Source of the DNA: Ogataea parapolymorpha DL-1
Lineage: Eukaryota; Ascomycota; Pichiomycetes; Pichiales; Pichiaceae
Length of the DNA stretch: 64,000 bases
Assembly: GCF_000187245.1 (NCBI RefSeq)
Contig: NC_027861.1
Coordinates: 744,001 to 808,000 of the forward strand
Reading direction: 5' to 3'
Positions 45,202-61,328 of the stretch are shown piece by piece. Both the position numbers and the translations under genes were made by a program. The notes beneath the pieces are model-generated. The model did not search any database. It saw nothing but the letters and a program-made list of their open reading frames with translations, and had not been told where the DNA came from. Each line of letters begins with the position of its first letter. The stretch's first letter is position 1.

Positions 45202-46139
45202 ATGAAACAATTAATTGTGAATAACGACGAATTGGATCTTGCACTGGTAAGTTAATCTCTTCCGGTTACTAACCCGGGCCTTTTGTATTGTGAGAAACAA
45301 GAATAGCTCAAAGCTAGCTTTGAAGGGTAAGTGGAATCATCTGGACTCTAACAAAAGACTACGTCTGGTCATTAAAGCAGAAACTGAGAAACTGTTCCAA
45401 CAAACCCGTTAAAAGACTTGCATACTATCCTGCTATTGTAATAGATGACAAGTACAGAGATATTGCCGACAAGCTCGGCATTTCTTTCAATGGAAGAATT
45501 ACAAATAACAAACCCCTGAGCTCTTTAAAAGGATCAGAAATGAAGGGTATAATCGAGCTTCTACAATTTTTCATTGAAACAGACCACTCAGCGACATTTG
45601 AAACCCAAAGGCATATTGTAAAGTACATTGGGTTGTCTACTTTACGGTTTGACTCACATGTCCAGCAGGGACGACTATTGAGCTTACTTCAAAATCTCTT
45701 TGTTTCTACGGCCACAACGAAAAATGCAAACTTTCATTACACAATGCTAATTAACACGTATTTCCATCTTGCAAAACACTACAAAACAAAGCTAAATTTG
45801 CGCATTTACAGTCTGATGGATTTGATTCAAGACATAATAATGGCTGCCCATGGGATCAACTTAGTTAAAGATAGATCCAGATATGCAGAACTTATATCAG
45901 ACTACAGATTCAAGCCAAGTCTTAGAGTGGACGAAGCAATCGAACTCTCAAAGCAGCAGTTGCAACTTCTCCTCTACTATTTGATGAAACTTCTAAACAC
46001 AGTCATCCAATTGCTGGACAATTTTGCAAAACGAAAATTAAAACCTAGGTTTACTCCGAGAAGGCAAAAACTACAGGCATTCTTGATCTTGAACAGAAAC
46101 ATCGAGCTGCTCCAGCTACTCAAACAATGCAAAATATAG
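45202..46139 (+). CDS. Unidentified all-helical protein, probably spliced
   Basis: The simplest model is exon 1 45202-45246 (MKQLIVNNDELDLAL) and exon 2 45381-46139, giving 267 aa. The frame before the first internal ATG (45540) is open back to 45324, which argues for an upstream exon. Exon 2 is Leu/Lys-rich and predicted helical (HIVKYIGLSTLRFDSHVQQG, LLQNLFVSTATTKNANFHY, LRIYSLMDLIQDIIMAAHG, LQLLLYYLMKLLNTVIQLL), with no membrane segment or signal peptide. The C-terminal KRKLKPRFTPRRQK is basic. I do not recognise the family. Donor GTAAGT at 45247, TACTAAC at 45267-45273 and alternative acceptors make several splice forms possible. Neighbours give no hint. Confidence 0.55.
45247..45380 (+). 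other. Probable intron (or two nested introns) in the unidentified gene
   Basis: The donor GTAAGT and the TACTAAC at 45267-45273 are perfect. The acceptor is ambiguous. GCAG ending at 45380 gives a single 134-nt intron. Acceptors AAG at 45301 and 45357 with a second donor GTAAGT at 45327 would give a micro-exon (45302-45326) flanked by 55-nt and 31-nt introns, also in frame. Confidence 0.5.
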
Positions 46140-48170: not shown

Positions 48171-48262
48171 TGCAGAAGAATAATACGTTGTTCAAATAAA
48201 TCAAACTTATTTACCCAAAAAATAAATGGCGGACATATTATTTAAAAGCTATTAAGTTCACC

Positions 48263-48710
48263 ATGGCAATTGAGCTACTCTCCTTTTTGCCACAGGCTCC
48301 CGGATATCTACCAAAATGGCTATTTTTCGTAAGTGCTTACTTTCAGATTTACTAACTCGAAGATATCTGCTGTCAGCGTTTTCAATTCCGTCCAAACCTA
48401 TGTCAACATTGATCTGACCAAACGTGTCTATGAAGGCAAGCCGAGCGAGGTCACGCCATTGTCTGCACGCACATTTGGAACTTGGACATTATTGGCTGCT
48501 ATTGTGAGAATCTATGCCTCGTATAACATCTCAAACCCTCAGATCTATGACATGTGTCTTTACTCGTACGTTCTAGCAGGTCTCCATTTTGGCCTCGAGT
48601 GGCTAGTGTACAAGACTGCAACATTCGGAAAGGGCTTGCTGGGCCCATTAGTTGTCGCTAGCACCTCTATTGTTTGGATGGTGTCGCAGAGAAATGAATA
48701 CTGCAACTGA
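48263..48710 (+). CDS. ERG28: Ergosterol biosynthesis scaffold Erg28, spliced
   Basis: Exon 1 48263-48328 encodes MAIELLSFLPQAPGYLPKWLFF and exon 2 48363-48710 continues ISAVSVFNSVQTYVNIDL, giving 137 aa. The junction reproduces the Erg28 text (GYLPKWLLF-ISIVSVFNSIQTYV in S. cerevisiae). The protein has four membrane segments; LSARTFGTWTLLAAIVRIYA and LHFGLEWLVYKTATFGKGLLGPLVVASTSIVWM (in parts) are conserved. Erg28 tethers the C-4 demethylation enzymes (Erg25-27) and other sterol enzymes on the ER. The ATG is preceded by ACC, and the gene is divergent from CAP2. It is convergent with BCY1 (36 nt). Confidence 0.93.
48329..48362 (+). other. 34-nt spliceosomal intron in ERG28
   Basis: The donor is GTAAGT (48329-48334), the branch point is a perfect TACTAAC (48350-48356, A at 48355) and the acceptor is AAG ending at 48362, 7 nt after the branch A. 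It is the shortest confidently supported intron here. The acceptor AAG is less usual than CAG or TAG. Confidence 0.9.
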
Positions 48711-48746
48711 TATGTCAAATATTTGATTAAGAACAAATATACGAGT

Positions 48747-60266: not shown

Positions 60267-61328
60267 TCACAGAACTCCGTACTTCTCCAGCAACTGTCTC
60301 CTCTTTGTTTCTCTGATCAGTTCCTTCTCTTTTTCTTTGTCATTCATTTCCGGCACGTCTGCTATTGGCGACGCTTCAGCCACCGAATTCTGGCTAGGCA
60401 ATGGCTCTCCTAAGACGAATTTCTCACTGTCTTTCTTCTGCTTTGTGTTTGCAAATCGTTTCTGCTTTTCAAACTCCTCAGCTTCGCCAGATTCCTGTCG
60501 AACGAATTCGCCTTCTTCGTTAAGAAACTTCGATTTGTTGTCCTCTTTTGTGGTCTTTTCGATTTGTTCCTCCTGCTCCGTGATGCCAACACCCTCCAGA
60601 TACTTTGCCTTTTCATCCAAAGCTCTGGTTGGAATATTTGTGCCGCTAGCGGTCATGGTCTTGGAGTTTGCCACAGCTTCGGCAATGCCCAACTCTTCCA
60701 TCTCTGCAAGCTCGTCCTCGTCGTACTCATGGTCCTCCACAGCCGTTTGCTTGATCCGTTTCTGCTCGATTTCGCGCATGGTCTTAAGATGCTCTTCGTA
60801 GTCTTCCTCGTTACTAAAGCCGTGCCATCGATCTCGTTTAGTTTCCCAGTCTTGAGTGTCTTTCTTAACCCGAAGAACCTCTCCAGACCTGCTTTTGGGC
60901 TCTTCTTTGCGATATTTGAAGCTGATTTTACGCGGTTTCTCCAGACAGTCTTTTTTCGAATGCTTGGTGCTGCCGCAGTTCTCGCAGCCTCCCTTTTTGA
61001 GCAGCTTCCGTCGTCTTTTGATTTCCTCTGTCACAAAATCGTATTCGTCCTCGATTCCTGCGCCCTTTCGAGGCTCGCTGTTCGGCACAAACTCTGCGTC
61101 CGGGTCAAGACGCTGATGTCGTAGTTTGTCCACAGATGCAGGCTCGGCCGCTCGTTTCCTGCGCAGGTTTGAATCAACCTTGAGCGCGTCTTCCTCGTAG
61201 TACCAGGGTTTACTCGAGATGTAGTTTGGAATGTAGTCAGTCACTGGTTTTCCTGTGTCGTCGTATTTCGATTCATCCTCAGGGATTGGTGCTCCAAAAT
61301 GGTTGTAGCCTGGGTGATCGGTATCCAT
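60267..61328 (-). CDS. SLU7: Second-step splicing factor Slu7
   Basis: 353 aa. MDTDHPGYNHFGAPIPEDE and YIPNYISSKPWYYEE open the conserved core. A zinc knuckle CENCGSTKHSKKDC (Cys-x2-Cys-x4-His-x4-Cys) follows EIKRRRKLLKKGG, with the CLEKPRKISFKYRKE extension characteristic of Slu7 and then DWETKRDRWHGFSNEEDYEEHL (in parts). The C-terminus is a Glu/Lys coiled coil that ends in KRRQLLEKYGVL. Slu7 positions the 3' splice site in the second catalytic step, with a need that grows with branch-point to acceptor distance. It has no intron itself. Confidence 0.94.
   Translation of the reverse strand: MDTDHPGYNHFGAPIPEDESKYDDTGKPVTDYIPNYISSKPWYYEEDALKVDSNLRRKRAAEPASVDKLRHQRLDPDAEFVPNSEPRKGAGIEDEYDFVTEEIKRRRKLLKKGGCENCGSTKHSKKDCLEKPRKISFKYRKEEPKSRSGEVLRVKKDTQDWETKRDRWHGFSNEEDYEEHLKTMREIEQKRIKQTAVEDHEYDEDELAEMEELGIAEAVANSKTMTASGTNIPTRALDEKAKYLEGVGITEQEEQIEKTTKEDNKSKFLNEEGEFVRQESGEAEEFEKQKRFANTKQKKDSEKFVLGEPLPSQNSVAEASPIADVPEMNDKEKEKELIRETKRRQLLEKYGVL

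What the first reader, a model, noticed from the sequence alone, without database searches (positions are those of the whole stretch)
48329..48362. 34-nt spliceosomal intron in ERG28
Seen: GTAAGT, a perfect TACTAAC and an AAG acceptor are packed into 34 nt. Removing them joins GYLPKWLFF to ISAVSVFNSVQ, the expected Erg28 sequence. The 5' splice site to branch A distance is only 26 nt. This is far below what is usual for budding-yeast introns and near a steric limit for spliceosome assembly.
Basis: partly seen in the sequence, partly recalled or inferred. Interest (0 to 1): 0.8.

Follow-up and report, generated by a model that had tools for sequence, protein, structure and literature searches.

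The report
Tiny but ordinary yeast ERG28 intron
The sterol gene ERG28 of this methylotrophic yeast is interrupted by a 34-letter intron that would be record-short in baker's yeast but is typical of the small introns found in its own genome, and such introns appear to have spoiled deposited gene models in related species.

Summary
Bases 48329-48362 read as a 34-nt U2-type spliceosomal intron: GTAAGT, TACTAAC with branch A at 48355 (26 nt from the 5' splice site), and AAG 7 nt further on. Removing it gives a 137-aa Erg28 that matches Pfam Erg28 (E 2.8e-47) and relatives through the junction; retaining it stops translation after 30 codons. No RNA evidence was available.

The intron is far below baker's yeast's shortest (52-54 nt) but not exceptional at home. 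In the 264 kb surveyed (3% of the genome), 11 of 12 ORF-tested introns have a 5'ss-branch distance of 25-36 nt (lengths 31-45). Six motif controls gave 0 or 1 at 23-36 nt away from those loci. So 26 nt lies within this sample's peak.

The genome encodes U1 (143 nt), U2, a U2AF35-like protein, Prp18, Slu7, and METTL16- and SNRNP27-family proteins. I infer ordinary splicing by a spliceosome accustomed to compact introns.

Deposited proteins of O. haglerorum and O. philodendri appear wrong exactly at these introns for the two genes checked (ERG28, MVD1). The practical lesson is a possible annotation blind spot. Filed as a new member of a known kind.

The parts
48263..48328 (+). ERG28 exon 1 (22 codons)
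   Evidence: Open frame ending GYLPKWLFF; homologues align here
48329..48362 (+). 34-nt U2-type spliceosomal intron, phase 0, GTAAGT...TACTAACTCGAAG
48329..48334 (+). 5' splice site GTAAGT, complementary to ACUUAC of the genome's own U1 5' end
48350..48356 (+). Branch site TACTAAC, branch A at 48355 (inferred), partner of GUAGUA in the genome's U2
48360..48362 (+). 3' splice site AAG, 7 nt after the branch A, first AG after the branch site
48363..48711 (+). ERG28 exon 2 (115 codons plus stop)
   Evidence: Pfam Erg28 residues 16-126 of the joined protein; joined protein 137 aa

Best explanation
The 34 nt are an ordinary U2-type spliceosomal intron in ERG28, one of a class of very short introns (31-45 nt found here) that recurs in this Ogataea genome. 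U1 pairs with GTAAGT, U2 pairs with TACTAAC, a U2AF35-like factor helps to define the close AAG, and the spliceosome removes the intron constitutively; a retained copy would hit a stop codon early. The short donor-branch spacing is normal for this lineage's spliceosome. Shown: the sequence signals, the restored protein, the spacing peak in the 264 kb surveyed, and the presence of the snRNA and factor genes. Inferred: that splicing occurs in the cell, that it is constitutive, and why the spacing is tolerated.
For: Signals and restored frame; Pfam Erg28 across the junction. Of 13 relatives aligned (out of 120 listed and 205 found), the 11 that cover the position are continuous through it; P0001 starts at the junction and P0003 lacks it. 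The O. philodendri model P0001 begins MLTFQ-ISAVSV, which back-translates to ATG CTN ACN TTY CAR, compatible with a TGCTAAC branch site and a CAG acceptor at the same place (inference, no DNA seen). Spacing peak: 13 pairs at 25-29 nt against 1.5 expected. ORF-tested introns: 11 of 12 at 25-36 nt, against 0-1 at 23-36 nt in six control sets once hits at the real loci were set aside. The same kind of join gives an alignment without a gap at the junction for MVD1 (34 nt) with 1fi4, RFC4 (33 nt) with 7sgz, VPS25 (35 nt) with 1u5t, ARPC3 (35 nt, junction after residue 2) with 3dwl and CapZ beta (42 nt, junction after Met1) with 1izn. U1 and U2, a CCCH-RRM protein that looks like U2AF35, Prp18 and Slu7 are encoded.
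Against: No transcript read was seen, and the DL1 genome's own gene model for ERG28 was not seen. AAG is a less favoured acceptor in baker's yeast (recalled). The deposited O. haglerorum ERG28 model fits the same donor but an exon 2 starting 107 nt after it, so an existing annotation disagrees; it loses the conserved N-terminus, which argues against that model. One of three control motif sets (permuted branch) also gave 6 pairs at 25-29 nt where 2.2 were expected, so the raw peak is less clean than the ORF-tested one. Of the 11 census introns, 6 rest on reading frame alone, without a match across the junction, and CAP2's junction follows only the first Met.
Confidence: 0.95

Rival explanations
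1. The intron is real but is a regulated switch: retention, or use of the next AG at 48376, gives a short dead-end product and tunes Erg28 level.
For: Retention gives a stop after 30 codons; joining to 48377 gives a 33-aa product. 94 alternative-splicing events of the retained-intron kind are reported for strain DL1 (PMC3866509, section 17).
Against: No evidence seen names ERG28; such dead ends follow easily from an intron whose length is not a multiple of three. The 5' and branch signals are perfect consensus, which fits constitutive splicing.
Confidence: 0.08
2. Not an intron: a sequencing error or a 34-nt insertion that frameshifts a decayed gene.
For: Only a single assembly was read.
Against: The insertion would have to bring donor, branch and acceptor in the right order and spacing. 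Both exons are otherwise intact and conserved, and the same anatomy recurs in five other conserved genes whose joined proteins align with solved structures (in two of them the junction lies after residue 1 or 2). O. haglerorum and O. philodendri models carry traces of a gap at the same site.
Confidence: 0.02
3. Non-spliceosomal removal (Ire1/tRNA-ligase type, as in HAC1).
For: Short size only.
Against: It has GT...TACTAAC...AG signals that match this genome's U1 and U2.
Confidence: 0.01

Closest known systems
S. cerevisiae MATa1 introns (54 and 52 nt)
   Same: U2-type, short, TACTAAC-type branch site (branch site recalled)
   Different: Those are the shortest known in that yeast (PMC3485267 passage); this one is 18-20 nt shorter and is typical of the short introns sampled in its own genome.
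Other short introns of this genome (MVD1 34 nt, RFC4 33 nt, ARPC3 35 nt, VPS25 35 nt, CAP2 42 nt)
   Same: Same anatomy: GTAAGT (GTAAGA in CAP2), CTAAC-type branch 25-33 nt away, AG 6-8 nt after the branch
   Different: ERG28 has AAG where these five have CAG or TAG (RFC1's 38-nt intron also has AAG) and a perfect TACTAAC where MVD1, RFC4 and CAP2 have variants.
Short introns of Encephalitozoon (mean 35.8 nt) and Trichomonas (many about 25 nt) with conserved branch motifs
   Same: Very short introns that keep clear 5' and branch signals (PMC2483917 passage)
   Different: Unrelated lineages; here in a free-living budding yeast.

Membership tests
U2-type spliceosomal intron | 5' splice site complementary to U1 | tested here: met
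   GTAAGT; U1 5' end AUACUUACC in the same genome. U1 scored 74 bits, below Rfam's 80-bit cut-off for U1_yeast.
U2-type spliceosomal intron | Branch site complementary to U2 | tested here: met
   TACTAAC; U2 carries GUGUAGUAUCUG
U2-type spliceosomal intron | AG acceptor, first after the branch site | tested here: met
   AAG at 48360-48362
U2-type spliceosomal intron | Removal restores a conserved protein | tested here: met
   Erg28 137 aa, Pfam E 2.8e-47 over the junction
U2-type spliceosomal intron | Spliced RNA and lariat | not testable with these tools
   No reads held
U12-type intron | RTATCCTT donor and TTCCTTAAC branch (motifs recalled) | tested here: not met
   Donor is GTAAGT, branch TACTAAC
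Erg28 family | Pfam PF03694 above its cut-off | tested here: met
   160 bits against 22.2

The most novel reading that the evidence does not exclude
Ogataea has a spliceosome settled on a 5' splice site to branch distance of about 25-29 nt as its commonest short-intron arrangement, roughly half of what human in vitro assembly needs and in introns well below baker's yeast's shortest, possibly helped by a compact U1 (143 nt) and retained U2AF35-like, METTL16 and SNRNP27 genes. It would then be a convenient budding yeast for studying how U1 and U2 fit on a minimal intron, and deposited gene models of the genus would be wrong at many such introns.
Probability: 0.5. Interest if true: 0.62.

Novelty: new member of a known kind. 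Interest (0 to 1): 0.42.

Why it matters
As a single intron it is ordinary. As a class it matters in two ways. First, size rules drawn from S. cerevisiae (shortest introns 52-54 nt) do not hold here, and human in vitro assembly needs about 50 nt between 5' splice site and branch (PMC6692369 passages), so this yeast could be used to ask how the spliceosome handles about 26 nt. Second, deposited Ogataea proteins appear damaged at such introns: ERG28 of O. haglerorum lacks its N-terminal part, and MVD1 of O. haglerorum lacks 26 conserved residues (TLKYWG...TLSQ). This matters for gene models of an industrial genus.

Tried and rejected
Alternative acceptor at 48376 (48-nt intron): out of frame, 33-aa product. 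Retained intron: stop after 30 codons. The O. haglerorum-type model (donor 48329, next exon from 48436) reproduces the deposited 95-aa protein's shape on this DNA (MAIFRKPSEV...) but starts in another frame and drops conserved sequence; rejected. Smu1/RED as helpers for short introns: RED_N and LisH_TPL gave no match, but no control genome rang either, so this shows nothing. Solved structures for Erg28: 4 matches up to E 1, best E 0.11, none meaningful. A literature search for 'Ogataea' with 'short introns' and 'splicing' found 0 papers. The other nine searches (one search listed 20 of 44) listed none whose title or shown abstract start names this class in Ogataea. Bon et al. 2003 (PMC150231) is not held and the 2011 intronome review was seen only as a reference, so I do not claim that the class is unpublished. 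An earlier form of the intron census had a units slip in one filter and was replaced. The survey also listed longer candidates, most with an exon-2 frame open far upstream, that I did not pursue. The 38-nt intron in an MFS transporter gene (window 43585, -) is not in the count because it failed those filters. The two introns of the 45202-46139 gene are not in it either; they were worked out separately.

Full report
Observation. The 34 nt at 48329-48362 are as described: GTAAGT, TACTAAC (branch A 48355), AAG; 26 nt from donor to branch A and 7 nt from branch A to the last base. The joined frame (48263-48328 plus 48363-48711) encodes 137 aa. Pfam Erg28 matches residues 16-126 with E 2.8e-47, across the junction at residues 22/23. 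Without splicing the frame stops after 30 codons. The next AG (48376) leads to a 33-aa product.

Relatives. A protein search gave 205 Erg28 relatives, 120 listed. I aligned 13 of them: 11 run through the junction without a break, P0001 starts at it and P0003 lacks it. P0001 (O. philodendri) starts MLTFQ directly before ISAVSV, which back-translates to a sequence compatible with TGCTAAC and CAG, that is, a start inside an intron at the same place (inference, no DNA of that species seen). P0003 (O. haglerorum, 95 aa) reads MALFRKPSEV; taking the same donor on our DNA and continuing from 48436 gives MAIFRKPSEV and the rest of that model. [Candida] arabinofermentans (P0005), which I recall as belonging to the Ogataea clade, has a full-length model; whether its gene has an intron there is unknown. 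No full-length Erg28 named as O. polymorpha or parapolymorpha appears among the 120 listed rows; 85 rows were not shown, and the DL1 gene model was not seen.

Source. The window is contig 6, 744001-808000, of an 8,874,589-base genome in seven contigs. Together with the protein matches this suggests Ogataea (Hansenula) polymorpha or parapolymorpha (inference). The DL1 genome paper reports seven chromosomes, 457 intron-containing genes, an average intron length of 65 nt, and annotation by AUGUSTUS with RNA-seq hints and manual curation (PMC3866509: passages, section 17). It may therefore already list some of these introns.

Is it special here? I had 264 kb to survey (window plus 200 kb of the same contig, about 3% of the genome). 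Pairs of GTAWGT/GTGAGT and CTRAC peak at 25-29 nt: 13 found, 1.5 expected. Controls at 25-29 nt: reversed donor 1 (2.5 expected; but 7 at 20-24 nt), reversed branch 1 (2.4 expected), permuted branch 6 (2.2 expected). With strict motifs: 4 at 25-29 nt, 1 at 60-79 nt, none in the other bins up to 200 nt. With a reading-frame test (branch up to 150 nt from the donor, acceptor within about 20 nt after the branch) 12 donors pass. Eleven have branch distances of 25, 25, 26, 26, 27, 28, 28, 29, 29, 33 and 36 nt and lengths of 31, 33, 34, 33, 34, 36, 38, 37, 38, 42 and 45 nt; the twelfth (85 or 103 nt) overlaps the RFC4 locus and is probably spurious. Six control motif sets gave 7, 12, 5, 3, 9 and 5 donors in all; after setting aside those within 150 nt of a real locus, 4, 8, 4, 2, 5 and 5 remained, of which 1, 1, 0, 0, 0 and 0 lay at 23-36 nt. 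Longer introns were outside this design. ERG28, at 26 nt and 34 nt, sits inside the class.

Are the others real? A match crosses the junction for MVD1 (34 nt; 1fi4, no gap at the junction), RFC4 (33 nt), a Zn(2)Cys(6) regulator (33 nt; Pfam 47-80 over a junction near residue 55) and CapZ beta (42 nt, junction after Met1 only). One fixed-gap pattern (GTAAGT, 16 N, TACTAAC, 4 N, AG) had 2 matches in the whole genome and 0 in its reversed control. Both are in conserved genes: ARPC3 (junction after residue 2) and VPS25 (no gap at the junction), each with a 35-nt intron. A 38-nt intron in an MFS transporter gene (window 43585, -) is spanned by Pfam MFS_1 residues 78-482 but failed the filters. Six of the eleven census introns (zinc-finger-like protein 31 nt, prefoldin-like 36, DUF2415 protein 37, LMBR1 38, RFC1 38, unknown 45) have no match that crosses the junction (of LMBR1 and RFC1 only the first 249 and 246 residues were scanned, which hold the junction).

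Annotation. For MVD1 (205 proteins, 120 listed), the O. haglerorum entry P0121 reads ...APVNIA-KDLRT, keeping the exon-1 end but losing TLKYWGKRDKDLNLPTNSSISVTLSQ. The O. philodendri entry P0122 starts MTLKYWG, losing the first exon. [Candida] arabinofermentans P0123 is complete. So 2 of 2 genes tested look wrong in 2 of 2 species named Ogataea in those lists. A minimum-intron setting in gene finders would explain this (inference; the pipelines used for those species were not looked up, and an AUGUSTUS limit of about 39 nt is recalled).

Machinery. The genome encodes U2 (202 nt, GUGUAGUAUCUG), U1 (143 nt, AUACUUACC; 74 bits against a cut-off of 80), Prp18, Slu7 (it lies in this window), a CCCH-RRM protein which by its layout I take for U2AF35 (L033; one of 13 CCCH matches), a protein of the METTL16 family (PF05971; that family also rings in 5 of 14 prokaryote controls) and SNRNP27. 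The U2AF35-like gene fits the review's remark that short branch-AG distances go with U2AF1 (PMC5499181 passage). METTL16 and SNRNP27 fit a +4A donor (GTAAGT), as associated in PMC10581693 (title and abstract start, passages). RED_N and LisH_TPL were not found, but the controls were silent.

Judgement. The intron is very probably real (0.95) and works by ordinary splicing. Its size is striking only against S. cerevisiae (52 and 54 nt, PMC3485267 passage) or human in vitro limits (about 50 nt from donor to branch, PMC6692369 passages). Shorter introns are known elsewhere (PMC12316389 passages). The larger point is a recurring class of about 31-45-nt introns in this genome, with apparent damage to deposited gene models as a consequence.

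Noticed in passing
45202-46139 (+): Gene with two apparent introns: 45247-45301 (55 nt; 67 nt to 45313 also keeps the frame) and 45327-45357 (31 nt, branch CTCTAAC, 24 nt from the donor); 283 aa, no Pfam family over its cut-off.
   Followed up: partly
48167 (-), divergent neighbour of ERG28: CapZ beta (CAP2) gene with a 42-nt intron straight after its ATG.
   Followed up: yes
48226-48255 (+): Nine-codon upstream ORF (MADILFKSY) just before ERG28's ATG; whether it is transcribed is unknown.
   Followed up: no
28980 (+) and 43585 (-): 36-nt intron in a prefoldin-like gene and 38-nt intron in an MFS transporter gene.
   Followed up: partly
60267-61328 (-): Slu7, a second-step splicing factor, is encoded in this window.
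   Followed up: no
L038 1501-1643: U1 snRNA of only 143 nt, against a 567-position yeast U1 model.
   Followed up: partly
ERG28 (window 48329) and MVD1 (contig C6, 159729): Two sterol-pathway genes both carry 34-nt introns; probably coincidence in so small a sample.
   Followed up: no
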